Positions 1 through 18,523 of a stretch of DNA of 64,000 bases are shown here, piece by piece. The notes under the pieces are model-generated. The model did not search any database and was not told the DNA's origin. It saw only the letters and a list, made by a program, of their open reading frames with translations. The DNA is from Byssothecium circinans. Taxonomy: Eukaryota; Ascomycota; Dothideomycetes; Pleosporales; Massarinaceae. Within the stretch, counting starts at the first letter, position 1. Every line of letters starts with the position of its first letter. Location: assembly GCA_010015675.1 (NCBI GenBank), contig ML976979.1:307926-371925 (forward strand), in the 5' to 3' direction. The position numbers and the translations under genes were made by a program.

Positions 1-250
1 TCATCTCTCTTGTAGGTGGCAAGTGACGCGCTGTGAGTCCTTGTATGTATTTAACAAGCTCTGCCTCTTGTTGTGGAGTAAGCTTTTGTTGCGTTGTTGC
101 TTGAGTCGTTCGCGATGATTGGATCTGCTTATGCCGCCGCGATAGGGTAATACGGTTAACATGATAGTCTGCTGCAATTTTGGTATATGTAAAAGGTTCT
201 CCTGGCTCTAGCGCTTCGATAGCTTCAATTGCAGCCTCAATTGACCCCAT
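1..250 (-). mobile_element. Fot1/pogo-type DDE transposase, N-terminal part, cut by window edge
   Basis: Reading leftwards from an ATG at 250, the frame stays open to the window edge, giving about 83 residues. It starts MGSIEAAIEAIEALEPGEPF and continues with a helix-turn-helix segment (YTKIAADYHVNRITLSRRHK). That is the psq-type DNA-binding start typical of fungal Fot1/pogo transposases, which normally continue into a CENP-B-type HTH and a DDE catalytic domain. No stop or frameshift is seen in the visible part, so the element could be intact further left. The catalytic domain is outside the window, so activity cannot be judged. Family assignment is by recognition of this N-terminus. Confidence 0.72.
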
Positions 251-1912: not shown

Positions 1913-2495
1913 TCAGACAGAGGGGTCATTGCTCGGGTTGCTCTCCGACCACACGTTGTTGATCTCATCGTCAGCATCGCCGCGAGGAGCGTTAGACGGG
2001 TTGCTCTCCGACCAGACGTTGTTAATGAGGTCATCGGCATCGGAGCGAGGCGCATTGCTGGGGTTGCTCTCCGACCAAACATTGTTGATGAGGTCGTCGG
2101 CGTCATCACGGGGAGCATTGGACGGGTTGCTCTCCGACCAGACGTTGTTGATGAGATCATCGGCATCGGAGCGAGGCGCGTTGCTGGGGTTGCTCTCGGA
2201 CCAGACGTTGTTGATCAAGTCATCAGCATCATCACGTGGAGCGTTGCTGGGGTTGCTCTCGGACCACACGTTGTTGATGAGGTCGTCGGCATCATCGCGG
2301 GGAGCGTTGCTTGGGTTGCTTTCAGACCAGACGTTATTGATCAGGTCATCGGCATCGTCACGAGAAGTGAGCCCACGTGTCGCTACACCAAGTCAGCATT
2401 GAATATGAAGGATTCCAAGATCGAGAACGCCTACGGATCTTGTACGGTAGAGCAAGCACCGTGCTCGCGAAGAGGACGACCGGAACGAGACGCAT
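1913..2495 (-). CDS. Secreted 21-residue tandem-repeat protein, candidate RiPP precursor
   Basis: Two exons: 2435-2495 and 1913-2382. The 52-bp intron (2383-2434) has donor GTAGGC, branch GCTGAC and acceptor TAG. The 176-residue product begins MRLVPVVLFASTVLA, a clear signal peptide that only splicing joins to the repeats. Residues 28-174 are exactly seven 21-residue units; residues 175-176 are the tail. Each unit has Arg, then D/S/G, then DADDLINNVWSESNPSNAP; the last unit has E for L and D for A. Established: fungal dikaritin precursors have a signal peptide and repeats, are cut by Kex2-type proteases, and are cyclised by UstYa/DUF3328 proteins. Two such genes lie 3.3-5.2 kb away. Odd: units are separated by Pro-Arg rather than the usual Lys-Arg, and Trp replaces the Tyr common in known cores. 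Alternative: a secreted repeat effector or wall protein. Confidence 0.75.
1922..2362 (-). repeat. Seven-copy 63-bp tandem repeat (coding)
   Basis: Seven head-to-tail 63-bp units, 441 bp with no partial copy. On the + strand each carries a variant of GGGTTGCT(C/T)TC(C/G)GACCA. Differences are mainly third-codon changes plus the variable codon after Arg, so the repeat keeps its reading frame and protein sequence. This suggests selection or gene conversion on the encoded peptide rather than neutral satellite drift. Confidence 0.95.
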
Positions 2496-3534
2496 TTTGG
2501 CAGAGTTTGGGCTTGAGGAGATTAAGCAAATGAAAAATTTGGGACACGAACTCAGTCAAATTGACCACGAGTATCAACGAATATCCTCACTTGGGCGACT
2601 TATATATGGTTGGAGAGTCGGCTGCTGATGTAGGGTAGGATACGCGCGCTTCCCGGCAGAACCAGGATGTGTACCCTAGCGCTGGGGACGCATACGATGC
2701 ATCATCTTCTTCCAGGGTCTGCTTCGTGCAGCTCCATTCAGTACCTAGGTAGTTCGTGGCCTGGCATGAATGGTCCGGCATCGGGCAAGCCCTGAGATCG
2801 TATCCAACGGCTATCATACGGCAGGTCGACTGAGACTTTACCATTCGATCGAGATCGGAATGTAGGGATGTATACCCAGGGCTGATCATGGGTTTGATGC
2901 CCGTTGTACACGCGCGGGGACCGTTGCTCTGGGCCCGACCGTTGAAGCCAATGACTGATCGATCACGGCGCTTTTCAGATCTTGGCTGACTTTAGCGCAG
3001 CGTCCTCTCATTACGCCGAAGCGGAGCTTGATGACCATTTCCACTGCTCAGTAGTACAAATCGGGCAGCTGGACATTTTGAATGCAAGGCAATATCGAAG
3101 CGGACTTCGACCCATGCCAGTACCTTTACTTTTCACCTCCTCTACACCTGTTACGAGATTACACGACATTCAATTTGTATTTGCCAATGCTCTACCTGAG
3201 GAATCAATCCCGAGCTCCGGTCAGTAGGCTTCAACCTCCACATCATCCAATCACGTATCTTGAAGATCAGTATGCTCTACACCGCTATGGCACAGGAAGA
3301 ACCAAGGAATTATCATTCCGACAAGGCAAATGCACTCAGTGGCCTTACAGCTCAGCTCAGCACGAATCTGCAGCGTCTCACTCCAGCATCGATCCGTACA
3401 CGAATGCATGCATACATTACAGAGGCCTCATGTTGAGGGACAAGGTCCATGCCTGTTCATCCGAACAACTCAGTGTTACCTAGTACAACCTCTTCACCGA
3501 TCATACACATAACGGGGGCGTCTATCTACCCCAA
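2496..3534. other. Intergenic upstream of the repeat protein
   Basis: About 1 kb holding the presumed promoter of the repeat-protein gene (leftwards) and the 3' region of the aldehyde dehydrogenase. A minus-strand frame at 2587-2889 has five cysteines but no recognisable domain, and I do not call it a gene. The plus-strand frames here look non-coding. Confidence 0.5.
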
Positions 3535-5146
3535 TCAGTCATCCCAGGTTACAGCCTTGGTCACTAGGAATTCCTCCATTCCCTGCTCGGCGTTGAACCT
3601 ACCCCACCCGCTGTTTTTAATACCGCCGAATGGAAGTGCAGTCTCATCATGGATGGTCATGCTGTTGATGTGGACGGCACTGTCATTGTTAGCCTGTTTT
3701 CGGACGCACACTCGGATACTTCGCTCACCCTGATTCGAGTCTCTTCGCAATCGCAAGGCCCTTGCGCAGGTCTTTGGTGAATACTGAAGCCGAGAGGCCG
3801 TATCTGGACCCGTTCGCAAGGTTCACGGCTTCTTCTTCGGACCCAACGACTGTGAGTGCTACGACAGGTCCGAATGACTCTTCATCCCAGATATCGGTCG
3901 ATTGGTCGACGCCTTCAAGTACTGTAGGAATAAGAGCTGTGCCTGGCAAGGTCTCCTTCCCACCGTCTCCGAAGACTACCGAAGCACCTTTGTCGATGGC
4001 TTGTGACAGCAGACCTTGGAGTCTGCTCTTTGATGCATTTGACACCACTCTTGGCAATGGTTGCTCTCCTGCGCCCTTGGCCAATCCTTCCTTCAAGATT
4101 TGGCTGAATTGCGCAGCGATGCTGCTCTGGACGATGATATGATCCGTTGCCATGCAGATTTGCCCGGCCTGCATATATCAATACTGAACCTCTCAGAGTA
4201 TGTATGGCACTCACGTTGATCAGGGAACCAGCAATGCATGACTGCGCGGCCAACCCTAGATCTGCATCTTCTAGCACAATTGCGCTGTTCTTGCCGCCAA
4301 GTTCCATCAAGCAAGGCTTCAGATTTTCGCCACAAGTTCGAGCCACTTTCCTGCCCACTGCTGCACTTCCAGTGAAGTTGATCTTGCGGACCGCCGGATG
4401 CTCAATGATCGTGTTCACGATTTCGGCAGCTTGCTCAGGCGGGCATGAGAGGACGTTTACAACACCCTTTGGCAGTCCAGCCTCGTGAAATGCCTTCCCA
4501 ATGGCCCAATAGCTCCTGGGAGTCAATTCTGACCCTTTCAAGATTGAAGTGTTTCCTGTTGCAATTGCGGTGGCAGCTGAACGGATAGCAAACACGAAAG
4601 GTGCGTTCCTAATTCGAAGTTAGTGAACGGCTTGGGGTCGAAGATTGCTAAAGGTCGAGTTTCCTACCATGGGCATATGCCTAGTGTAACGCCATACGGC
4701 TCTTTATACACGATACTGCTCTGGCCTTCTTGCTGAACCGTTGGGACGAATCCTGTTATGCTCAAAGACCTTCCAGCTAGGTCTTTCAACATTTGCACCG
4801 CCAAAGGAAGCACAAAGAACTGTGCCACAAAGTTCTCCGCGCCCATCTCAGTCGACATGTAGCTCGCATATTCTGCTGCATTTACTTCCAAGACCGCTGC
4901 AGTCTTGAGAAGGACTTCCGAGCGAACTGCAGGTTTAGTTTTCGACCAACTCTTGAACGCTTCTTGAGAGGTTTCCACGGCCCGAATCGCATCTTCGCGA
5001 CTCGCAGCTACTGCATTCCAGCAGATGTCGTTCGAGACTGGACTGAACACATCAAAGGTATCTTGACGCAGTTCCTCCTGTCCGTCAATCCATAGCGGTA
5101 CAGTGACGCTCGTTCCATTCTGCGCGGGCGCTGGTGAGAAGGCCAT
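3535..5146 (-). CDS. NAD(P)-dependent aldehyde dehydrogenase (salicylaldehyde/vanillin dehydrogenase-like)
   Basis: Four exons: 4668-5146, 4215-4608, 3729-4168, 3535-3679; introns 49-59 bp; 485 residues, normal for the ALDH superfamily. Start is MAFSPAPAQNGTSV. Visible motifs: MELGGKNSAIVLEDADL with the catalytic-base Glu, AGQICMATDHIIV with the catalytic Cys, and SFGPVVAL and ALPFGGIKNSGWGRF in the C-terminal half. The enzyme should oxidise an aldehyde to the acid. The sequence resembles the aromatic-aldehyde group, but the substrate cannot be fixed. It is divergent from the first UstYa gene across 675 bp and next to the repeat precursor, so it could be a tailoring enzyme of the proposed cluster (inference) or an unrelated catabolic gene. 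Confidence 0.88.
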
Positions 5147-5821
5147 TTTCCTAGCTAATGTCAAAGACAAGATTGGCGTCGGCAATAGTGGGCGTAAAAT
5201 GAGGTAAGAAATGGCGTGCGCTGGCTTCAAGCCTCCCAGCGATAACCTGGAGTAGCGAAGTCGCGCTGCTTCAGCGTTGCATGTTTCTGCGCCGCAATCT
5301 ACCAACCGTCTCACTGTGATACCCGAAATTCTAGACCCAACAGCAACCCCATTTGAACGGACGTTTCCTGCAGCCTGATCCCCGACGCCGGGACAGCCCG
5401 TGCAGCGTTTACCCGTATTTCGCACGGATCACTCATTTGGGCAAGCCATTGGAGCACGGCTCGCACGGCAATCGAACGCCACGTCCGATCTAACGGTCTA
5501 TGTCAGCTCGTAATCTGGGCTTGGAACTACCGGTCAGCCGAGATCCTCCTCTGGGAAGGTGTTTTGAGATAATCCGCTAGATAACGGTTGGACCCCAAAC
5601 GGCTAATACCTAAGCGAGCACAGCGCTAGCGCTGTACGTACGTATGGACGTGCTGGGACGCAATCGACCGATCGGTACTACGGCATACGCCGGTCTCGTT
5701 TGCTCTCATGATCGTGGCGAGAAGCTGAGAGAAGAATGTGGGAGGCGAGCATGTGAAGTGTTGGACTGTCAGGTCGCTGCCACTCGAAGGTTTCACATTT
5801 TGCAGCCCGCAAACTCACAAT
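5147..5821. promoter_or_regulatory. Shared divergent promoter region, ALDH / UstYa-A
   Basis: A 675-bp interval between the start codons of the leftward aldehyde dehydrogenase and the rightward UstYa-like gene. Divergent pairs in fungal clusters are often co-regulated from such an interval. A TACGTACGTA palindrome lies near 5635-5644. No defined factor site can be assigned. Confidence 0.4.
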
Positions 5822-6755
5822 ATGCCATCTTGGAACTACGCAAAGTTAGGCGAGGATGAAAATGGGAGCTTGCATAATACCAGGGACACTTCTGCTTCCA
5901 TTGTAAAGAAATTGAGGCTGTATCAAGTGGCTGTAGGGATACTCCTCATCCTGAATGTCGGGTTTGTGAGTGCATGGTGGAGGTCGTCTACCAACTGCGT
6001 CCGGCCTCAATTAGTGTATTGTAAGCGGTCACTTCCTTTTGCTTTAAGTCTGTATTGACGATTTGTAGCTCCGGCAAAGGGTGCCATAAAGTACGAGAAA
6101 AAGCGATTATTCCGAGATATCGATAACAACGTCTACGCGGGCAAACCACGGCCTGAACACGATGAAGCATGGGCAAAACTCATCGAACGTACGTAAACTC
6201 ATATTTTTCAATGTAAATAGTGCAAACTTACAGTGTTTAGCCATCACTATTAAGGTGTCACAGAAGGAGCTGGATATAATCGGCGAGGAATCGATCGCGC
6301 TCAAAGATGGCTCTGGCTTCATCGCTGAGACTGCCGTTTACCACGAACTTCACTGCATCGTGAGTCACTCCTCCCTTCATCAACCATCTCTTCTGATGAT
6401 GAGCTAGAAACGCATTCGTCGCCATCTCTACCTCGATCACTACTATCCGAATATGACAGAAGATGCAAGACTGCGTGAAGGGCCACACATCGGTAAGAAA
6501 CTCATACTGCTCTCAACATTCGACTCCTGTAGGCTTAATCCTTTATTAGATCATTGCCTTGAATATATGCGCGAAGCAACAATGTGCAGAGGCGACACAA
6601 CTCTTTCCTCCTTCCGATGGGCAGCACATAAACCCTTCTCGCATGTGTATAGTGACCATGAGTGCGTCAACTGGCAGAGACTGGATACATGGGCGAGGTC
6701 GAGAATGGTGGATATGTCTGACAAGTCGATCTTGGCTCCTGAACTGCCCATGTAG
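5822..6755 (+). CDS. UstYa/DUF3328 family protein A (putative RiPP cyclising oxidase)
   Basis: Five exons: 5822-6020, 6069-6188, 6241-6359, 6408-6492, 6550-6755; introns 48-57 bp; 242 residues, typical for the family. Start is MPSWNYAKLGEDENGS. One membrane segment at residues about 34-52 (YQVAVGILLILNVGFVSAW). Then comes the family block around PEHDEAWAKL and the two diagnostic HxxHC motifs, HELHC at 141-145 and HIDHC at 173-177, followed by LEYMREATMCRGD and HECVNW. Established: UstYa-family proteins catalyse oxidative ring closure or hydroxylation in ustiloxin, phomopsin, asperipin and cyclochlorotine biosynthesis, using the His/Cys motifs. It converges with a second family member whose stop lies only 85 bp away. 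Substrate by inference: the repeat peptide encoded at 1913-2495. Confidence 0.92.
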
Positions 6756-6840
6756 TAGCGCACAGCAACGAAATCAAGCATCTCGTCACACATTTCATTT
6801 TTTTATCATTGTGTACGCTAAGGCCTGCTGCTGGACCCGA

Positions 6841-7710
6841 TCACCCACCATGCCCATGTCCATGACCCTTCTTCCCTTCCTGCCCTTCGGCCGACAGTAT
6901 AGTCCATCCGTCATTATTCCGCCACCTCTCTGCCCACTCCACAACATCCCAATAATTTCTACATTGTCTCTCGACTCCCCACCCATCCGTCACTCCGCTG
7001 CCCTTCTCCGGCTTTTCGAAGTTTGTATCCGCAGCACACATCAACGCTTGCCTGACGTAATCAAAGCAATGCTGTATGTGACTAACAACCGTCCGCGCCT
7101 TTACCTCCTCGAGATATGGGTCTCTGTACGACGAATTTTTGAGGACAGCGTTGTCGTGGAGGGATATGTAGTAGGCTACGCGGATGGTATGGAGACAGTG
7201 GATCTCGTGGAATACGGAGAGTGAGGCGTTGGTCGGAGCAAGCGTGGGGTGCGTTACGAAGCCCCTCCCATCTAATGATGGATCAGCATGTACTTTGAGA
7301 GTTTGAGGGCGAGCAAACCGTACCTGGAATGATGGATTGCCATGCTGCTTCAGATTCCGGACTTGGTTTATCGGCGAATGTGTGGTTCATCTGCCATACT
7401 GACTTCGTGGTTCCTAATTGGCCTTTTGGCTTTCCGTTAGCACAAAAGACAGAAGTTCGAGGTTGATGCATCACTGACCTGGAAATCCATCGGTATCACT
7501 ATTCCAACTTATCTTCGGCATCTGTCCAACTAAGACACCCACCACGAACGCGAATACTGCTATGACGAGTCCATATACAAAATTGGTCGTCTGCTGCCTT
7601 CGCGCATGCTCTCTTCTCGCACTTCCACCCTCAACCGCAGTCTCACCATCATCACCATCTAAACTCTGATATTTCTGCGGTTGTGGAAGGAAAGCTTTCA
7701 CTTTCTCCAT
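6841..7710 (-). CDS. UstYa/DUF3328 family protein B (putative RiPP cyclising oxidase)
   Basis: Three exons: 7479-7710, 7324-7413, 6841-7271; introns 65 and 52 bp; 250 residues. Start is MEKVKAFLPQPQKYQSL. One membrane segment at about 44-63 (FVYGLVIAVFAFVVGVLVGQ), then SPESEAAWQSIIPDGRGFV and the two family motifs, HEIHC at 129-133 and HIQHC at 172-176, followed by FDYVRQALMCAAD. The tail ends in a His/Gly run (GHGHGHGG), which could bind metal. Known RiPP clusters usually carry two or more UstYa paralogues, such as UstYa and UstYb. This one differs strongly from protein A, so the two are not a recent duplication. It is convergent with protein A. Confidence 0.92.
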
Positions 7711-9175
7711 GGCTCGCTCGCTCAGCGACGTCGTGAAGCACTCCCGTCGTTCGTAGGCTGAATTCAGAAGCGCAGATCAAACGCCACTGGCAGACTCCAC
7801 ACCCGTTGCCGCAGCCACGATCGCCGTTCCGCAGCCAAAGCCGTACCCGTATCCGTATTATCTCCCGATATGAGGTCGACGTGCAGTATCCAATAGAATG
7901 ACTTCGTATTTTCAGCGGCGCACGGTCCTTGGAGTGTACGCAATGAATCCTACCACCGGTTGTACGATCACCGTTGTAACCCCACGACAGCTGACCTGCA
8001 GTGCAACCTTCGAAGCTGAACTTCCGCGCCGCACTCCAACAAGTTTTCGTAGAGATTGTATGCACACTCCAAGCCACCAAAATGCAAAGTACGCGAATTC
8101 CAACGAAAAGAAAACGTTATAATCGAACTGAGTTTTCCCCGCGAAGCATGGTGCGCTGGGCTCGGATTCATATTACCGTCCAGTATTATTATTACAAAAT
8201 CGCAGCATGCATGCTCGTCGGTTGCAGCCGTCCTACATGCTGTGTAATAATACCAAGAAAATGCATCAGCGCGCCGAGCGCCCCAACAGGAAGCTCGTTA
8301 CAATGATTGGAGGAATGAGATCTTACAGGCGCTTAACAAGTGGTTTGCCTTAAGGTTCGGTCCGATGGATGGCTTGTGAAAATCCGTATTACATGCATGT
8401 AGACCCACCTCATGCACTATGCGGGCAGTGGGCGGATTGTAGGAGGGGAAGCCCAACAGAATCAAAGGATGAGTGGACTGTTAGTGACCCCACTACAGCG
8501 TATCGTATCGTAGCATACAGCAGCTACTAGGGTGTGGTTATTATTGCTGACGAGTGGAAGAAGATGGAAGCCAGGGGTTGTAGTCCGAGACCATATGTGT
8601 AGCTGAGTTGTACGATAGCGGATTCCCGGCATACGAGCGTGGACGATAGATTGTGGGCCAATAGGTTGACCCAAGACTTTGAGGTCCGTTGTTGGGTCAC
8701 GGAACGTCAAACAACCCTCACCGTCGCATCGTGCATACTCCCTCATGGGGTGCTTATAGGGCGAGAAGGGATGTTCGAGATGAGGTGAATGGGATATTTT
8801 GGGAAGTCAACGGGTTGAAAGAAGAGAAAGGCTGGCAAGTCACCTGCTGCAACAGGTGGATGGTTTAGATACGAGACCTCCGAGGTCAGCCAAGTCAATT
8901 GAATAGGTGTGCTGGTGCGTGCCCTTCCGCTCCGTAAGGAAATTCCCGTTCAGCACTGTGAAACTTGATCTGGATTCTAAATTACAGCGGCTGCAGCCTC
9001 GCTCAGCTCATCTTTCGTCGACTCATGGCAGCATCGAACTACTCCTACGCCGCAGGTACACATCCATCGTCCCTCGCCTTTTGTTGCTTTTTGCGGTAAG
9101 CAGCCACTGGATAGCCGCTCAACGTCTATTGCGACATCGCTTGGGCTTGAGTGTATTTGACCGACTCTCTTCATC
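7711..9175. other. Intergenic, no gene recognised
   Basis: About 1.5 kb between the divergent UstYa-B and rhodopsin-domain genes. A minus-strand frame at 7652-8080 is open for 142 codons and Cys/Gly-rich, but overlaps the UstYa-B start, has no known domain and is not called. The rest holds only short frames. Confidence 0.5.
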
Positions 9176-10453
9176 ATGGGTTTCGACTATCGCACCCCCA
9201 CACAAACACCAGAGCTCCAATATGCTCTCGCCATCATCCTCACAATCGGACCGAGTATCTTCGTCGCTCTTCGATTCAGAGCGCGACACATCAAAGGCGC
9301 GAAATGGGACTGGGACGACTGGCTAATATGTATCGCACTGGTAAGTAAGCGCAAAGATCGTCGCTACCACAAGGTAGTAGGCCCTATTGTGCAATAGCTT
9401 ACCATGATTTGATAGTTCTTCACCTACGTGACGGCCGTCTTCCTCATCATAGGCACAGCAGCAGGCTATCAAGGCCGGCACATGCGCTTCACCGGACCCA
9501 ATAATGCTATCCCAGTCATCTCTGACCCAGGCTACATCATGTTCCTCAAGATGCTGTATGCCGGTCAACTCAGTCAAATCTTCGCCATTGGGCCCACCAA
9601 GATTTCGGTCCTGCTCTTCTATCGGCGCATCTTTCGGGGCAAGGCATTCAACATTGCAGTATGGGCGCTCATTGTGCTCGTCAGCGCATGGATAATTGGC
9701 TTCTTCTTTGCAAATCTGTTCGAGTGCGTGCCGATCAAGGAAGCATTTGTGAATGCGCCGGGTATGGGAGGTAACCCGAAGTGTATCGATGCGTTACCGA
9801 TGTATTTGGCGCAGGTTTATAGTGATGCCGTTTTGGATGTTTTGATCTTGGTGCTGCCAATTCCGTTGGTGTGGAAGCTCCAGTTACCGACAAGGCAAAA
9901 ATGGGCTGTTAGCGGTATCTTTCTGTTGGGTCTCATGTAAGTGAAGCGGCCTCACGCACTAGTTGGACACCGCGACTAACGCATGTAGTACCGTGCTGTC
10001 GAGTTGCGCGAAGATGATCATCTTCAACTTCGTCGGCCACGAACTCCAAAAACAAGCCGATATATCCTGTAAGTCCCTTTCATCTCTCCAATTACCCTCG
10101 TAACTCTGTCTCATGCATCCCCAGACTTCCTCTCTCCCATCGCCTACTGGCCTATCATTGAAGCCGCACTCCAAATTGTAGCCGCCTGCCTCACGATGCT
10201 CAAGCCCCTTTTCGAAGACTGGCGTTACTTCTTCGGTTCCGCAAAGACGCGTCGTTCAAAGGGTTATCTCAAGTCGACGACAGGTTACGAGAGTGGCCAT
10301 GCTACCGAGGACGGCATGATATATAAGACGAGTGATGTACAAGTCACTGTAGAACGAAATAGTAAGAGTACTCGGGAAGTGGATAGCATAGAAGAATTGG
10401 AGTTGCGTAGAATCGGAACCGGGCCGAGGCGCACCGAAACGTGGGCCGAGTAG
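9176..10453 (+). CDS. Fungal rhodopsin-domain (SAT4-like) integral membrane protein
   Basis: Four exons: 9176-9340, 9416-9936, 9989-10068, 10125-10453; 364 residues. Start is MGFDYRTPTQTPELQYALAI. Seven predicted membrane helices follow the order usual for the fungal rhodopsin/SAT4 family. Seen are WDWDDWLICIAL at the end of helix 2, PTKISVLLFYRRIF, the NPKCIDALPMY loop, SDAVLDVLILVLPIPLVWKL, and YWPIIEAALQIVAACL in the last helix. The cytosolic tail is charged (SIEELELRR). Such proteins include Pth11-like candidate receptors, but most are of unknown function and ligand. It lies 1.5 kb from UstYa-B; membership in the RiPP cluster is not shown. Confidence 0.88.
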
Positions 10454-10711: not shown

Positions 10712-11715
10712 CTACGCATCAGTCAAGTACGTCGTTCCTCCAGCCTGGCGATCAAAATCCATGCTTTCTTTCAACCCGCAGACCTCAAAAAGCTCTCTCG
10801 GGCTCCACCTCTTCCCATCCCTCTCAACACTTTCAACCTTCCCCCCATCAAACAACTGTCTCACCGCCTTCCTAACCGCTGGGTAGACAACCTCGAAGCC
10901 CAGAGCGGGATAGATCGCAATCTTGTACCCAATCTCTTTCGCCTCTTGCCATGTAAAGTCCGGAGACACGCCACCTGGAACATTGTTGAAGAGACACGGT
11001 GTTGGAGCGAGGTCTTTAATAAGTTGTACGGCTTCTTCTTTCGTATTCACACCTTCAAGGAACGCTGCATCGGCGCCGGCCTTGACAGCAGATTTAAGGC
11101 GTGAAATGGCGGAGTTGTATCCGAGACTTTGAAGTGCATCGGTGCGGGCGATTATGACAATGTCACCGCCTGATTGTTGACGTGCTAGGACTGCCGCTCG
11201 GATTCGGCTGACGTATTCGTCTTCATCGACCAACTGTTTCCCCTTCAGATGGCCGCATCGCTTCGACACGACTTGATCCTCTAAATGTAAACCAGCAACT
11301 CCGGCTCGGATATATGCAGTTACGGTCCGTCCAACCATTAATGCTCCACCATATCCAGTGTCTGCGTCTGCAATGAGCGGAGTGCTTGGAGAAATAGAGG
11401 CGATCATTGCGGCGTTGTCTCGCATGTCGTTCATGGTCGCGACGCCCATGTCAGCCATTCCGAGTTTAGCCATCGTTGTGCCGGCGCCAGTCTGTGGATA
11501 AGTCAATTAGTTTGATGTCATATGAAGGTTGGAGGGGAAAAGAAAGAAGAGAAGGTACACACCATGTATAGACAATCCGCGCCTTCTCGAAGAGCTATCC
11601 GAGCCAGATACCCATCGTAAACACCAGGACACACAACAATCTTCTCCGGATCCGACAGCATACTCCTCAGCTTTTGCACAGCTGTGACTGGTTTCGCGCC
11701 ATCAGATTGCGCCAT
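10712..11715 (-). CDS. Isocitrate lyase/PEP mutase superfamily enzyme (oxaloacetate hydrolase / dimethylmalate lyase-like)
   Basis: Two exons: 11563-11715 and 10712-11491; 71-bp intron; 310 residues. Start taken at MAQSDGAKPVTAVQ. The alpha/beta-barrel motifs are present: VCPGVYDGYLARIALREGAD, the metal-binding ADADTGYGG, HLEDQ, and the KRCGHLKGKQL loop with the catalytic Cys of the superfamily, then IARTDAL and FNNVPGGVSPDF. Family members cleave or form C-C bonds next to a carboxylate (oxaloacetate acetylhydrolase, 2,3-dimethylmalate lyase, methylisocitrate lyase). The length fits the short secondary-metabolism type rather than full isocitrate lyase. The exact substrate cannot be read from sequence. 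The intron donor GTGTGT is a slightly unusual variant. Confidence 0.87.
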
Positions 11716-12873
11716 GATTTCCACTCCTTGAGTCCCAAGCTCTTTGAAGGTTCAGTCTTCTCCAATCCCAGAAAGACCGAAAAGCCTCGGTTGTAGTAAC
11801 AACGAAAGTAAACCTTCAACGAGCATTCAAGTTCCGGAAACAGTAGCACCACCAGAAGTTCTCAAAATGCGTTCATCCAACTTTCCAGACCGGCGAGTTC
11901 GCCCATCTTAAATGACAACGACCACCTCCGTCATTATCTTCCCACCCTCGGCAACCTGATTCAAGCACAAAGGATTGAGATTCTGACATGACAGCACCAC
12001 ACACATGCATCGGTCCCAAACGACCCCACCCAGTATTCCCACTACTCATCTTTTCCTACATAGTTACAAACCCACAAAATTTTCCCATACCTACGCTACC
12101 GCTATCGATGTCCATCTAACCACCGTCGAGTGCCATCAACTACACGTACTAGGTAGTATTACAGTATCAAGCATTTCACCACAGAACTTCAAGACTTGTT
12201 CTGTTCTTCTTCAACGCGAAGTTTTTCTTGCTCTGCCGTTGAAAGACTTGATGGTTTGAAAGCTCGTATGCTGGTCAACAATGACGGCAACATGCACCCC
12301 GCATCAAGCAGATATGACCTGAGCAGCGCTTTGCCGAACTTCGCCGACCGTTTGGCCGATATCATGAAAAGGGAACGTGAAAACGGTTTCCACCACTTCT
12401 AGACAATGAAAACAATACTCGCAATTTATTGGCGTCTTCGCCGATGTTCTCCCATGCCGAGTATGGTTGTGCGTGTGGTCGGCTTAGTGCAATCTTGGCG
12501 TGGAAAGCCCAGAGCTACCATGGTAGGGCCCAAAGCTGCTCCCTTGTTTCCGTAACTCCACAACTCACCTCACAATTCTGTGCTCTAGGAGCCGGAACTT
12601 GACCTATACATTTTCGAAGGGCCACACCTCTCTAAAAAAAGATAGCTTCAGGCTGCACGCTCCTCGTGCGAGCAGCTTCCGTCCCGTACCATCAGCCAGC
12701 GCTCCTAGCCTACCAGCATCTCAAGACTCGCTCGGCGCCGCCCACTGCTTCCTGCTTGCCCGTCCTTAGAGCCAGCGTGCTCATTTTCCGCCACTCTCTG
12801 TCCTAATCGGCGCCTGTCAGCTGGCTCGGCCGGCATAACCCGCCATTATACAAGGGAATACTACAAACATTCG
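11716..12873. other. Intergenic, no gene seen
   Basis: Short frames only on both strands; none has splice signals that would join them into a longer reading frame. Confidence 0.55.
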
Positions 12874-14259
12874 CTAAGAAAAACGAGCAGAGCACTCCTC
12901 GTTATATGCCTTCAGTTGCTCCATCTTCCTGTGGGTAAATGACTCCATCTCTTCACACGCCTGATCGTCAAGCAAGGCAGAGCTGTCATTATGTAGTACA
13001 GCCCAATATATGGAATCCACCTCGAAGCCCTTCCTTGCTGCGTAATTAAACCAGAATCGCCGGGTCCGCCACGAGTCGCGCATCCGGGCGGAAAGAGGTA
13101 GCGCACTAGGTTGCTTACAAACTGATGACTCCGCTTCTACATGCTCTAAAATGTGTAGGAATTGCTCCATTCTAGGCTCGTAGAGGGCCAGGAATTCTTG
13201 TAAAGCGCAGCGATCAAGCCAAGTTTCCGGTCCAGATAATAGAAGCCACCAAGGCGAGTCGTACGCGAACTGGGCCGGCAGAGAATTTGTGAACTCAAAA
13301 TCGAACACGGCAGTAATCTGCAAGGTTTCTGGATTTACGAGCATGTTCGCAGGTCGCATATCATCGCAGAAGGGTATAAACGGACCAGTATCATCAATAC
13401 AATACTTTGGGATCAGCTGTGCGAACTGACGACGAGCAATAAATCGCTTCCGAGCGATTTCTTCGTCATCAGCAATGTTGCGCTGGGTCCAAAGGTGGTC
13501 CAGATGCTCCTTCGCGACTGACCTGAAGTAGTCGCTTGCGCGGTCGATGGGTGCAGTAGGAAATCGATCTCCAGGGCAGAATGCGACAGTCGCCAACTCG
13601 TTCATATTATACGTTAGGGGTCTTCTAATAACCCAATTTGCGTGGTCGTCCTTCGATATGGCTCCAATGCGGGGGAACCGAAGTTGAGAAATTTGAAGCA
13701 TATAATCCGCAATTTGACGATAGATCTTGTCTAATATCGTCTTGTCGATGTTTGGGTTGAGAACCATGTCCTCTTGATCCGGTTGCTTTAGGATAGTTGA
13801 TAGAAGCGTTCCCTCAACATAATCCATGATGATGAATGGTCCGAATTGGAGTAAGTTCCTCGCTGCTGTCTTTGTTGTTGGCTTCGCTGTTGTACCCCAG
13901 CTATGCACTGTGGGGAGGGGAATAGTGGTGTGTTGGCAGAGGTATTCCATGGTCTGGACCTCGTTCTCGACCTTTTCGTCCCTCAAATCTGTAGCTGTGT
14001 GTCCCGGTTTAGGGAACCGAACAAGAGCGTCCGAAAAACCTTCACTGAAACGGATTCGGAAGCTGAAGTTGAAGGAACCCTTCAGAAAACCAACATACGT
14101 CCCGGATCCGCGTCCTTCTAAGAGATGAGCAACGCAATCTGCTACCTCCGCCTTGCTGTCGAAGAGCCTATTCAACCAAGCTCTGCACTCATTATCACCG
14201 TCGGTCACGGCTATCTCGTCGAAATATGACTTGAGTGAGAATATCTCCTGTTGAGGCAT
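12874..14259 (-). CDS. APH-fold phosphotransferase family protein
   Basis: A 461-residue single-exon gene from MPQQEIFSLKSYFDEIAV. The N-lobe has a glycine loop region (GSGTYVGFLKGSFNFSFRIRF) and a hinge FIIMDYVEGTLLSTIL. The C-lobe has the Brenner-type catalytic block FCDDMRPANMLV (D and N conserved) and the metal-binding DFEFT. The His of the bacterial HxD motif is replaced by Cys, which is common in fungal members. These are kinase-like enzymes of the aminoglycoside/choline kinase clan with small-molecule substrates that are usually unknown. There is no evidence that it confers drug resistance. Neighbours give no pathway context. Confidence 0.85.
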   Translation of the reverse strand: MPQQEIFSLKSYFDEIAVTDGDNECRAWLNRLFDSKAEVADCVAHLLEGRGSGTYVGFLKGSFNFSFRIRFSEGFSDALVRFPKPGHTATDLRDEKVENEVQTMEYLCQHTTIPLPTVHSWGTTAKPTTKTAARNLLQFGPFIIMDYVEGTLLSTILKQPDQEDMVLNPNIDKTILDKIYRQIADYMLQISQLRFPRIGAISKDDHANWVIRRPLTYNMNELATVAFCPGDRFPTAPIDRASDYFRSVAKEHLDHLWTQRNIADDEEIARKRFIARRQFAQLIPKYCIDDTGPFIPFCDDMRPANMLVNPETLQITAVFDFEFTNSLPAQFAYDSPWWLLLSGPETWLDRCALQEFLALYEPRMEQFLHILEHVEAESSVCKQPSALPLSARMRDSWRTRRFWFNYAARKGFEVDSIYWAVLHNDSSALLDDQACEEMESFTHRKMEQLKAYNEECSARFS

Positions 14260-15610
14260 GTTGAGAACGGGAGGGGAAAAATCGGAGTCTCACGAGAGTC
14301 TTCCCAGGAAGATTACAGTCTCATGCTTATAGCAGGCGGGGCGCTAGTTGGCTAGCGTGCTTGGCATCCTAGGGCCATCATCTCAGCGTCTCGCTCCACC
14401 AAACCTAGTTAGATCAATACACTTCACTTCTTGTACACCTGTTGTTCTCAACCCTCCGGATATTGCAAAATCTAGCTGGCAAATCTTATGAGTCTAGCTC
14501 GATTGGCTAGCACGGGGCACAGGAATTGCAGGGGCAAATGCAGGGTACGGCGGCTCAAGCCCGGGTCACAACTGTGAATCTTAGAGTCCAGGAAGCATGA
14601 AACGAGATGGCATAGGCGGGCCTGAAAAGCATCATTGTTCCATGTAGTTCTCCGATTGTGAACAGAGCCCCGTAGATGCTACATCTGCTACCTAAAAGTA
14701 GAAATCGCAGCCTCAGGTATGGCACCAACAGCACGTGCTTGAATCCGCTCCTCGTCTGATATTTGCCCGAGTCCCGTAAGTGACAATGTGATCAAGGTAC
14801 CCATACATACCTCTTCAAATCCAAGTTCCATCGTCCACAACCTTTTCCTTCCTCCGCCACATGTAGGGAAAGCTCAAACCCCCACCGAAATCATCACCTT
14901 TTAAAACCACATCACTCCACCCGATCAATTCAGCAGGCCTCTAGAATAACTTCCTTCCATCAGGTACCAACTCAAGAATCACTCTTACGCTCCTTTGGTT
15001 TCATCGCCTCCGCCCATGCGATGATGCCATTGTGGAATCCATTCATTCCATCGTTGACACCGTAGCGACATCCGGTAATCCCACAAAACTCACTGACACG
15101 ATATTGACAGTGGCGCTCTAGTGATGATGATTCAACAGATAAATGCATTACCTTGTCGGCATCGTATTGACAGTCGGTGGCACTCCAGTCCCAACTGTCG
15201 CGAAGAAAATATAGTTCAATTCAATCGAACATAGCAGCGGCACCCGAGAAGCCGATCCACAGCGCCAGAACCGAGACTCAAGAATTTAATCCCCTCTAGA
15301 AAGAAACAAAGTGAGAAAACTCGATTCGCTGTGGCATACATTACGAACGCAGATCATACAAGACAAGACAAGAGAAGAGAAGAAGCAGCACGCAGTCAAG
15401 AGAGGAAGAAGCTACATATCCCTTCGGTTTCCGTTCTACCACAACGCGTCGCTCGAGAAGCGAGACACTCCAACATTTAGGAATACCCGGATATCTGTTC
15501 GATAAACAACCGCAGCATTGGTTTAGTACAGGAAGAGAACTGACCATCAACCACAAAATATCCTCTCTCCATCATCCTCCTCTGCTAAACTCCTTCTATC
15601 CTCCTCCAGC
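14260..15610. other. Intergenic, no gene seen
   Basis: About 1.35 kb. It contains the presumed promoter of the phosphotransferase gene and the 3' region of the Zn2Cys6 regulator. No open frame above 71 codons and no recognised element. Confidence 0.55.
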
Positions 15611-18523
15611 TCAACCAAATTGATTGTACCCCCCAGGCCCACCGCCACCCACTCCCCCCTCAATCCCCTGCATAAGCCCCCCTCCACCTCCACCTACCCC
15701 AACACCAACACCACCCCAATCCATCCCACTAGCAAAATCAAAGCTAGCCGCCCAATCATAATCGGGAAACTGATCGAGCATAGTCCTCGGTTGCATACCT
15801 CCACCACCCCCCCCTCCACTGCCATAATCCGAGCCAGTGCCATCGCCCCAGCCGCCGGTGCTGTCAAAGCTCATAGTCGCGGGATTGGGCATGGGGATGT
15901 GTCCCATGAGTGCGGGGTCGAATTTGGTGGGCATGGGGTTGGTTGTTGGGGGGACTTGTTGTTGGGTTTGCGAGGGGAGGATTTGGGTGTGTGGGGGTTG
16001 GGAGGAGAGAGGTTGGGGAAGAGGTACTTGTTGTTGTTGGGGATGGCGAGATGAATGGTGTTGCGGGTGTCGGGGATGAGGTGGTTGCTGTGAGTGGGGT
16101 TGGTTTTGGAGTTGGGTGTCTTTGGTGTCTTTGATGTAATCTGGGAGATAATGTCAGTACATCCCATTCAAAACCCTACCTCACCATCCTTGTGTCGATC
16201 CCAATACGTGCAGAAAGTGGGAAAGGAATACCCACCAGGCGTCCCCGACCTCGTCTGCGCCGTACTCTGCCCCGATCCACCCGCCTCTTCGCCATTATAC
16301 GGATTCTTCATATGTCCAAACTCCTCTCTCCAATACCAAAACATATCGAAGCTCAAACTCATGCTTAATCTCGTCCTCAGTCGCAACCCCAAGGACTCTG
16401 TAATCCAGACACCGCCGTTCTTTCCCGCTCCCGTGTTGCCGCTACCATCCCTTGCATTTCCAGCGTTTGCGGCATTCTCGGCGCTATTCTCGCCAGCTAT
16501 ATCCGTAGCAGGTGCATCGGGAGCAGGTACTTTTCTCCTGAAAATCTTCGAACTCCCCCAAAGATTCGTCATAATACTCGCACACCGACTCCCCAGATCG
16601 TTGCTCTGCATACTCGTGCTTCTCAGAAACGCGACGGCATGGAAATACGCAGTCTCTCCGGCTTGTAAATCTAAATGCGCCGCCAAAGGGCTCCGTACAA
16701 GCTTCAGAATAATAAAGCCGGCGAGGCAGATGGTGCGGTCGACGAACGATTGCGAGATGAGCGCGAAGGAGTTGCTGTGGATCATTGTGTTCGAGGTTTG
16801 GAGGGTGGATATGCAGAGGGAGTAGAGGCGCGAGAGAGATTCGGTGTCTTGGTTGGTGAAGTCGGCGAAGAAGTGGAAGGCGAGGATGTGGATACGCGCA
16901 CAGGAGAGGTGGAATGTATCTGTTACAGGCAAGATCAGCTTGACGTCTTGGTGCCCAGAGGCAATGGAAGGGAAGAATTGACGTGAATCAACTTACCGAA
17001 CTCACTCGGCGATGTAGCTGCCAGCGTGAGTAACTGCGAATCAAATATCCCAATCAAACTCCTCAACACCCCAAAATCCGCATTCGCACTCTTTAAATTC
17101 GTCCTGGCCATGGCCGCCATCGCCTTGTGCAGCACAACATGCAACTTGTGATTAAACTGCAAGTCCACCGGTAGACACGCCAACGTATCCTCCCTCTCCT
17201 TCTCATTGCCATCGAAGAATGTATCTGCAATGACCAGTGGCGGAATGCCTTCCGCACAACTCGTCCTTATACTGACAATAACGCAATACATCCACAGCCT
17301 CGCACGAAAGATTCTCTGTTCCTGGTCTTTCTTGAGCGGCATGCGAGCGAAGTCTTGGCCGACGCCGTCGACGTGGAGTCCGATTTGTGTGGCGAGATGA
17401 ACAGCCGCGCCGCACAGCATGTGCGTCATGTCTTTGTACATTGAGTTTGTTGGAAGGCGCCATGTGCAGAGGATAAGGAGGCCTTGGATTACGGGGATGG
17501 GTGTCGAGCGGAGGGCCATGGATGAAAAGGCTAGCGGTGTTATGAGTTGTGAGATGCGATCCAGGATTGTGAGGTCGTCATGGTATTGGCGGGATCCGGT
17601 TACTATTATAGTCCAGAAGAGGAAGGGGGAGAGTTCGTAGTATTCGTTGGGGGTTTGGGGGCTTATTGAGGAATCCAGGACGGGGAGTAGGGGGTGATAT
17701 TGTGAGAAAAATCTAGTCACGTGTTAGCGAAAGATACCATATAGTGGATGGTATAATTGGGGGAAAACGGGAAAGGCTTACAGTGAGAAACAATCGTCAA
17801 TCCTCTTTGAATCAACCACATAACCATCCAGCGCCCTACTCATCGTGCCTCCGTGACTCCCAGTCCCACTCCCCTTCCTCTCCAAACCATGCACACTTCC
17901 TCCTCCACTAACCCCAACACTCTCCCCATACTCCACAGGCGCCGGACTCAAACTTGCACTCGCATCCGTCCCTTCCCCACTCCTCAGCCCCGAATAATAA
18001 GCCCCCACGTCCATCGGGCTGTGAAAATTCGAACCCTGGCCATCTCCGCTTCCACCAGGCGTCGCATTCGCGCTCGCAGCACCCGATTGCCGCATATTCC
18101 ATTTCAATTCCTCTAGTTCGCGGCGCATTTCTGCTTTAGTTTGGCGCAGGTTGCGAGTTGACGTGGGCAGGATGCGGCATTCCAGGTTCATCTTTTTGCA
18201 TCTGTTGCAGGGGTCGTGGGGGGTTTTGGTTTGTTCGACATCGCAGCGTATCTGCACAAAGCTGTCAGTGTTCTGTCCATTCCATATCATCCCAGCGCTT
18301 CTGTTTTTCCATGTCCATCTCTTCCGGTGACATCTCTTTCAGTCTCTTCATCAAAACCGCATCGCGATCGCGGCTACATCCGCGCCTCCGTCCTTGACAT
18401 CCCATCTCCAACTCCACAGCTCCCGCAACTCCCATCAACCACACTCACGGAGATCGCACCTACTTTCTGCTGTCTACACTCCACACAAGCCTTCCGCCTC
18501 GGCGTCGCCATGGAATCCGGCAT
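15611..18523 (-). CDS. Zn(II)2Cys6 fungal transcription factor
   Basis: Five exons: 18464-18523, 17782-18251, 16997-17712, 16185-16919, 15611-16140; introns 44-212 bp; 836 residues. Start chosen at MPDSMATPRRKACVEC; the second Met, at 18511, is equally possible. The binuclear cluster spans the first intron: C-x2-C-x6-C-x11-C-x2-C-x6-C (KACVECRQQK, then IRC, PCNRCKKMNLEC), followed by a basic linker and coiled coil (AEMRRELEELKWNMRQ). The middle is the fungal-specific TF domain (FFSQYHPLLPVLD, LATQIGLHV, EQRIFRARLWMYC). The tail is rich in Gln/His then Gly, a likely activation region. It resembles LEU3/WAR1-type regulators in layout. Target genes are unknown; the RiPP-like cluster is 8 kb away, so a link is possible but unsupported. 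Confidence 0.9.

What the first reader, a model, noticed from the sequence alone, without database searches (positions are those of the whole stretch)
1913..7710. Candidate dikaritin-type RiPP cluster: repeat precursor plus two UstYa/DUF3328 proteins
Within 5.8 kb there is a secreted seven-repeat peptide precursor, two distinct UstYa-family proteins each with both HxxHC motifs, and an aldehyde dehydrogenase. Established: UstYa proteins cyclise peptides cut from signal-peptide repeat precursors in ustiloxin, phomopsin and asperipin biosynthesis. Seen: all genes are intact once spliced. Inference: the INNVWSESNPSN-type repeat is the core of an undescribed modified peptide. I do not recognise this repeat from known dikaritins.
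Basis: partly seen in the sequence, partly recalled or inferred. Interest (0 to 1): 0.9.

Follow-up and report, generated by a model that had tools for sequence, protein, structure and literature searches.

The report
Fungal repeat-peptide cluster, unusual cleavage sites
A plant-associated fungus carries an apparently unannotated gene for a secreted protein made of seven copies of one peptide, beside two copper-enzyme genes of a kind known to modify such peptides; it looks like a new fungal peptide pathway whose precursor has unusual cut sites that published searches would miss.

Summary
On the minus strand, 2495-1913 encodes a spliced 176-aa protein with a signal-peptide-like start and seven near-identical 21-aa units ([D/S/G]DADDLINNVWSESNPSNAPR). 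Two intact UstYa/DUF3328 genes (5822-6755 +, 7710-6841 -) and an intact aldehyde dehydrogenase (5146-3535 -) follow. The units differ almost only at third codon positions (171 synonymous, 32 non-synonymous codon differences), so the peptide looks selected. Both UstYa proteins keep the family's copper-binding motif pair. In the same genome (Byssothecium circinans), 8 of 35 UstYa places examined hold a secreted repeat precursor.

The reading needs correcting in three ways. (1) The precursor has no dibasic Kex2 site, only Pro-Arg between units, so it fails the published definition of a Kex2-processed repeat protein; the seven other precursors found in this genome have dibasic sites. (2) The unit has no Tyr; Trp is its only aromatic residue. 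(3) The ALDH may be there by chance. Most likely it works like a dikaritin: cleavage at monobasic Arg, then copper-dependent oxidation by the UstYa pair. Product, chemistry and function are untested. It is a new variant of a known kind.

The parts
1913..2495 (-). Repeat precursor gene: exon 1 2495-2435, intron 2434-2383, exon 2 2382-1913 (stop included); 176 aa; N-terminus MRLVPVVLFASTVLALP reads as a signal peptide
   Evidence: Of the splice options listed only this one (52 nt) and a 46-nt neighbour keep both the signal-like start and all seven units; no transcript evidence. Signal peptide judged by eye, no SignalP tool.
1916..2359 (-). Seven tandem units; units 1-6 (21 aa) [D/S]DADDLINNVWSESNPSNAPR, unit 7 (22 aa) GDADDEINNVWSESNPSNDPSV, then stop
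   Evidence: TRF score 508; codon table and third-position bias. No two adjacent basic residues anywhere in the protein; one Pro-Arg per junction between units.
2599..2606 (-). TATATAAG, 104 bp upstream of the precursor ATG: possible TATA box
   Evidence: Sequence printed; motif match by eye only.
3535..5146 (-). Aldehyde dehydrogenase: exons 5146-4668, 4608-4215, 4168-3729, 3679-3535; 485 aa; membership in the pathway uncertain
   Evidence: PF00171, 429 bits; generic, below the cut-off in all 25 NCBIfam rows shown of 45; closest paralogue found, on C43, is 52-66% identical per matched stretch.
5822..6755 (+). UstYa-1: exons 5822-6020, 6069-6188, 6241-6359, 6408-6492, 6550-6755; 242 aa; hydrophobic helix, VYSPA, W101, HELHC 141, HIDHC 173, C187, C213
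   Evidence: exons 1-3 and most of exon 4 agree with NCBI partial protein P0002.
6841..7710 (-). UstYa-2: exons 7710-7479, 7422-7324, 7271-6841; 253 aa; hydrophobic helix, W105, HEIHC 132, HIQHC 175, C189, C214; lacks VYSPA
   Evidence: NCBI partial protein P0091 is 100% identical over 150 aa.

Best explanation
This is a small biosynthetic locus for a ribosomal peptide that works like a dikaritin pathway but with a non-canonical precursor. Proposed steps: (1) the precursor enters the secretory pathway through its signal peptide (inferred from sequence); (2) a kexin (one kexin-type P domain was found in the genome) or a yapsin-type protease cuts after the Pro-Arg that ends each of units 1-6 and after the Ser-Arg before unit 1, releasing up to seven 20-22-residue peptides, and Kex1-type trimming may remove the Arg (inferred); (3) UstYa-1 and UstYa-2, anchored in a secretory membrane and each carrying the full HxxHC pair, act together as UstYa/UstYb do and oxidise the peptide, most plausibly at the invariant Ile-Asn-Asn-Val-Trp stretch, as a Trp-to-aliphatic cross-link or as desaturation or hydroxylation (inferred); (4) the acidic DADD stretch is spacer or recognition sequence rather than product (inferred). 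Shown here: gene structure, selection on the repeat, intact motif residues, relatives of both UstYa genes on shared contigs in two other fungi, and frequent pairing of UstYa genes with repeat precursors in this genome.
For: Repeat is coding and conserved as peptide. Both UstYa proteins are over the Pfam cut-off, and four His, four Cys and a Trp line up in all 10 proteins aligned, both window proteins included; PMC12435403 (parts 1-2 of 3 read) ties the HxxHC(x)nHxxHC motif to a dinuclear copper site. UstYa-1 and UstYa-2 relatives share a contig length in Delitschia (23,460) and in Lophium (2,251,244). UstYa-1 groups with Delitschia (93) in a clade of five with Mytilinidion, Lophium and Hymenoscyphus (98) (quick tree). 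A secreted repeat precursor lies at 8 of 35 UstYa places examined and none was seen elsewhere in the window or in L011. One kexin-type P domain found in the genome. Products that appear to end after a single Arg, 'possibly' by KEX2, came from fungal repeat proteins expressed in Pichia (PMC9769878 section 6), and monobasic sites are stated as confirmed in K1 and K28 toxins (PMC13211469 passages). UstYa proteins also desaturate (PMC10512285 passages).
Against: No dibasic site in the precursor, unlike the seven other precursors found in this genome. No Tyr in the unit, whereas 65.6% of DUF3328-linked repeats contain Tyr (PMC7329392 section 7). The protein search returned no relative of the precursor except one aphid protein and the genome search no paralogue, so conservation of the precursor between species is not shown. 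No peptidase, tyrosinase, methyltransferase or transporter among the 10 proteins scanned with Pfam; the rest of the window was only looked at by eye. No expression or mass data.
Confidence: 0.68

Rival explanations
1. The precursor is cut into linear secreted peptides (signal or pheromone-like) and the UstYa pair acts on something else; proximity is coincidental or only regulatory.
For: 6,120 of 7,878 repeat proteins of this kind have no DUF3328 neighbour (PMC7329392 section 7); UstYa proteins also act on non-ribosomal peptides and polyketides (PMC12048977 section 22); the unit has no Tyr.
Against: Pairing of UstYa genes and repeat precursors is frequent in this genome (8 of 35 places). With a published average of 5.25 such proteins per Ascomycota strain a chance neighbour within a few kb looks unlikely (inference). 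No XA/XP dipeptide follows the Arg.
Confidence: 0.15
2. The repeat protein is not processed: it is a secreted repeat protein, structural or an effector, with no small peptide product.
For: No dibasic sites; tandem-repeat secreted proteins without processing exist in fungi (general knowledge).
Against: An Arg preceded by Pro recurs at every one of the six unit junctions, and every Lys or Arg of the repeat region sits there; neighbouring UstYa pair; in L015 of the same genome two of eight units are followed by no dibasic pair while the others are, as if one Arg sufficed.
Confidence: 0.12
3. The repeat is a chance open frame or belongs to an antisense reading, and there is no precursor gene.
For: No annotated counterpart was returned; two antisense frames are free of stops and one is 0.84 identical between units.
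Against: The coding frame has the highest unit-to-unit identity (0.944), third-position variation, AGC/TCC serine switches that keep Ser, a signal-peptide-like exon with a GT-AG intron, and a stop directly after the last unit.
Confidence: 0.03

Closest known systems
Dikaritins (ustiloxins, phomopsins, asperipin-2a, victorin)
   Same: Signal peptide, tandem repeated units, one or more UstYa/DUF3328 genes close by; two UstYa genes as in the ustiloxin cluster; four-gene scale as in the asperipin-2a cluster (PMC6514808 passages).
   Different: Junctions are Pro-Arg only, no dibasic site; no Tyr, Trp the only aromatic residue of the unit; an ALDH of unsure membership where others have a tyrosinase, reductase or transporter; product unknown.
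Kex2-processed repeat proteins (KEPs), surveys of Le Marquer 2019 and Umemura 2020
   Same: Secreted, seven near-identical units, basic residue at each junction, DUF3328 neighbours as in 22% of KEPs.
   Different: Both surveys start from annotated proteins and require dibasic sites between units (PMC6339444 section 24; PMC7329392 section 13), so this protein could not have been listed even if annotated.
Cyclochlorotine DUF3328 enzymes (CctR)
   Same: Membrane helix and HxxHC(x)nHxxHC. A Talaromyces islandicus protein labelled cyclochlorotine biosynthesis (P0085) aligns with both window proteins at the motif, a Trp and two further Cys. The paper names a Trp and inter-chain Cys in CctR; I did not map its numbering onto these.
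   Different: CctR hydroxylates a non-ribosomal cyclic peptide; P0085 is only 32% identical to UstYa-1, and which Cct protein it is was not checked.
Delitschia confertaspora and Lophium mytilinum UstYa pairs
   Different: Not known whether a repeat precursor or ALDH accompanies them; their genomes could not be read here.

Membership tests
Dikaritin RiPP | Precursor with N-terminal signal peptide | tested here: inconclusive
   MRLVPVVLFASTVLALP fits the pattern by eye; no SignalP tool available.
Dikaritin RiPP | Multiple near-identical core repeats | tested here: met
   Seven units.
Dikaritin RiPP | Units separated by dibasic Kex2 sites | tested here: not met
   No adjacent basic residues in 176 aa; each junction is PR followed by D, S or G.
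Dikaritin RiPP | UstYa/DUF3328 gene(s) near the precursor | tested here: met
   Two, about 3.3 and 4.3 kb from the precursor ATG.
Dikaritin RiPP | Core peptide oxidised or cyclised by UstYa | not testable with these tools
   Needs mass spectrometry.
Kex2-processed repeat protein (KEP) | At least 3 repeats of 8 aa or more between KR, KK, RK or RR | tested here: not met
   Repeats yes, dibasic sites none (definition).
UstYa (PF11807) family | Profile match above curated cut-off | tested here: met
   170.8 and 76.7 bits against a cut-off of 25.
UstYa (PF11807) family | HxxHC(x)nHxxHC motif and membrane helix | tested here: met
   Motif in both proteins; a hydrophobic stretch of 17 or more residues in both; helix 31-53 in the model of the Lophium relative P0005.
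Ascomycete alpha-type pheromone precursor | Kex2 site followed by STE13 dipeptides XA/XP before each peptide | tested here: not met
   Units begin DD, SD or GD after Arg.

The most novel reading that the evidence does not exclude
The locus represents a class of dikaritin-like pathways whose precursors are cut at Pro-Arg alone and whose peptides are cross-linked at Trp rather than Tyr by a UstYa heteropair. Because the two published surveys seen here demand dibasic sites and annotated proteins, such pathways would be hidden from both and could be numerous.
Probability: 0.27. Interest if true: 0.68.

Novelty: new variant of a known kind. Interest (0 to 1): 0.5.

Why it matters
If right, it shows that UstYa-linked peptide precursors need not carry dibasic sites, so counts of fungal ribosomal peptide pathways are too low, and it offers a two-enzyme copper system with a Tyr-free, Trp-centred substrate: a direct test of what the UstYa family can do to peptides beyond Tyr ether formation. 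The prediction is cheap to check by transcript and mass data.

Tried and rejected
Relatives of the precursor: the protein search returned one aphid protein only (P0001, E 7e-6, NNVWSES-like repeats). I treat it as chance or convergence because both proteins are repetitive; not followed further. Paralogues in the genome: only the gene itself. The Pfam TPR_ZFYVE26 hit of the precursor is below its cut-off (26.2 against 27 bits, no stretch passing on its own) and dropped. The window frames 913-1704 and 1-207 matched no Pfam family.

Repeat scan: what counts as a precursor was judged by eye. Rows I dropped were low-complexity or odd frames in L002/L013, L016 and L025, and the other-frame readings of true arrays; so the bare scan also rings at 3 UstYa places (L013, L016, L025) without a precursor. 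I counted 8 of 35 places; two of the 37 UstYa places (on C89 and C94) were not fetched, 15 of the 35 were read over only 4.5-5.5 kb, five fetched loci hold stretches of N and frames with N were skipped, so precursors may have been missed.

Tree: the UstYa-2 clade (support 100) is largely by construction, as I put in only 3 of the 9 UstYa-2 hits with 75 of the 89 UstYa-1 hits (those of at least 220 aa) and the two window proteins; branching inside it is unresolved.

Solved structures: no relative of UstYa-1 by sequence (best E 0.86). The model of the Lophium relative (mean pLDDT 76, pTM 0.63) gave no match at E 0.001 or better in the PDB, so the fold adds nothing beyond the membrane helix. ALDH subfamily: only generic matches below cut-offs. 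Paper searches: six repeat strings, one of them (NNVWSE) from this precursor, 0 papers; Byssothecium circinans, 18 papers, none on peptides by title; three relatives by name together with RiPP words, none of the 10 listed of 733 papers names them.

Considered and rejected: alpha-pheromone precursor (no STE13 dipeptides); transposon or tandem-repeat artefact (third-position bias).
Full report
Source. The window lies in a 48.4-Mb, 109-contig fungal genome, C3:307926-371925. Two NCBI partial proteins identical to parts of the UstYa genes name it as Byssothecium circinans (P0002, 169 aa; P0091, 150 aa), Dothideomycetes, Pleosporales, Massarinaceae.

Gene structure. The precursor gene reads 2495-1913 on the minus strand with one 52-nt intron and gives 176 aa. 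Of the splice options listed, only this one and a 46-nt neighbour with the same acceptor keep both the signal-peptide-like start and all seven units; the neighbour would add an RR before the repeats, not between them. I chose the 52-nt one for its donor; a branch-like GCTGAC precedes the acceptor of both. A TATATAAG lies 104 bp upstream of the ATG. The ALDH (5146-3535, minus), UstYa-1 (5822-6755, plus) and UstYa-2 (7710-6841, minus) are open over all exons and score 429, 171 and 77 bits against Aldedh and UstYa in Pfam.

Is the repeat real? The seven units share DADD, INNVWSESNPSN and a Pro in 7 of 7; position 1 varies (D, S, G) and unit 7 differs at three further places. Among pairwise comparisons 171 codon differences are synonymous and 32 are not; 18 of 21 third positions vary against 4 and 5 of 21 at first and second. 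Neighbouring units are 0.944 identical in the coding frame, 0.52-0.54 in four other frames and 0.84 in one antisense frame; that frame and one more antisense frame have no stops. This is a point against, but I saw no signal-like start in the antisense frames and their identity is lower. Serine at position 17 switches between AGC and TCC/TCT, which needs at least two changes and keeps the amino acid.

What the junctions look like. The protein has no adjacent basic residues; Arg in the repeat region occurs only as the Pro-Arg ending units 1-6, preceded by Thr-Arg and Ser-Arg before unit 1. Published KEP surveys require KR, RR, KK (and RK) between units (PMC6339444 section 24; PMC7329392 section 13), and dikaritin precursors are described as separated by dibasic residues (PMC9769878 passages). 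So the formal definition is not met. [quoted passage not shown] One kexin-type P domain was found in this genome (C61).

Comparators in the same genome. PF11807 gives 56 exon-level matches, which I grouped by hand into 37 places; 35 were examined. Secreted repeat precursors were found at 8: this window, L014, L015, L023, L026, L032, L033 and L037 (none at the last seven places). Signal-peptide-like starts are visible in or upstream of the repeat frames of the seven others. All seven carry dibasic sites, but not at every junction: in L015 two of eight units are followed by no dibasic pair, and in L014 the first unit ends KER. The window's precursor is the only one with none. Acidic residues next to an aromatic core recur (for example DQDDGWKIS in L023), which suggests that DADD is spacer. 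The non-UstYa control was about 64 kb with 0 rows, too small to give a rate on its own; the published average is 5.25 KEPs per Ascomycota strain (PMC7329392 abstract).

The enzymes. A quick tree of 80 proteins places UstYa-1 with Delitschia (support 93) in a clade of five with Mytilinidion, Lophium and Hymenoscyphus (98). UstYa-2 and three of its relatives form a clade (100), but this is largely by construction and its inner order is unresolved. UstYa-1 gave 89 hits, UstYa-2 only 9, its own annotated piece included. In Delitschia relatives of both lie on a contig of 23,460 bases and in Lophium on one of 2,251,244; I infer linkage from the equal contig lengths, as positions are not given. In Mytilinidion only a UstYa-1 relative was returned. 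Both window proteins keep the two HxxHC motifs, a Trp and two further Cys that line up in all 10 proteins aligned. For CctR of this family, copper dependence, a 2:1 copper to monomer ratio, loss of activity on mutating the motif, and dimerisation through the membrane helix, a coiled coil and disulphides have been reported (PMC12435403 parts 1-2 of 3). A 2025 paper titled as showing side-chain macrocyclisation by a copper-dependent DUF3328 enzyme was seen only as a reference (PMC12186524 passages; not held). UstYa proteins also install dehydroamino acids in phomopsins (PMC10512285 passages) and act outside RiPPs (PMC12048977 section 22).

The ALDH. It is an ordinary ALDH with a 52-66% identical paralogue elsewhere. 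Of about 22 ALDH genes listed (hand count, where only the best candidates are scored), no other lies within 100 kb of a UstYa place. With 22 genes, 37 places and 10 kb each in 48.4 Mb, about 0.17 such neighbours are expected by chance (hand estimate), so I leave its membership open.

Boundaries. To the left, fragments that look transposon-like to me continue into L011; no Pfam family matched the piece scanned (window 1-207), so this is an impression. To the right lie a fungal rhodopsin-domain gene, a PEP mutase/isocitrate lyase-like gene, an APH-domain gene and a fungal transcription-factor gene, then genes that look like housekeeping ones by eye. None is clearly part of the pathway.

Mechanism and its limits. 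Shown: gene structure, selection on the peptide, intact motifs, shared contigs of UstYa relatives in two fungi, frequent pairing of UstYa genes with repeat precursors in this genome. Inferred: signal peptide function, cleavage after Pro-Arg, modification of the peptide by the UstYa pair, a Trp-centred reaction, the role of DADD. In the DUF3328-linked repeats of the survey 65.6% contain Tyr and 20.5% Trp (PMC7329392 section 7), so a Tyr-free, Trp-containing unit is a minority type but probably not without company.

Novelty. The string NNVWSE occurs in none of the 5.39 million papers searched, and the protein search returned no annotated relative apart from the aphid protein. A dikaritin-like locus as such is a known kind; an exclusively Pro-Arg precursor with a Tyr-free unit is a variant that no title or abstract start listed (30 of 5,011; 30 of 2,696; 35 of 35; 15 of 419; 10 of 11; 12 of 315) describes. 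Absence is limited by those listings, by a library that lacks most subscription journals, and by supplements that could not be opened.

Noticed in passing
L014:6358-6720 +, L015:6679-7356 +, L023:5712-6389 +, L026:2310-2585 -, L033:3-461 -, L037:3689-4276 +: Six further secreted repeat precursors with dibasic sites beside UstYa genes elsewhere in this genome, with units around GINYNGLK, VPDADTSYERFQDDVN, DDGWKIS, YYAYDF, DPHHKGKKAGKKNNK and AVYQAWYRATNIIPATDEE.
   Followed up: partly
L032:4339-4545 +: A seventh precursor (AYPESYKRDAEV units) whose array runs into stop codons after about four units, beside UstYa genes.
   Followed up: no
L015:6679-7356 +: Within one array the basic pair at the junction varies: most units are followed by RR or RK, two by a single R before H or P, as if one Arg sufficed.
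   Followed up: partly
P0001 (no window position): A pea aphid protein of 139 aa has three repeats like NNVWSESSSSN, the only database match to the precursor; probably chance between two repetitive proteins.
   Followed up: no
window 5822-7710: The NCBI proteins matching both UstYa genes are labelled partial, and no annotated precursor was returned; short repeat genes with an early intron are easily missed.
   Followed up: partly
window 9161-10453, 10712-11751, 12874-14289, 16168-18338: Fungal rhodopsin-domain membrane protein, PEP mutase/isocitrate lyase-like enzyme, APH-domain protein and a fungal transcription-factor gene to the right of the cluster (extents by eye); whether any belongs to it is unknown.
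   Followed up: no
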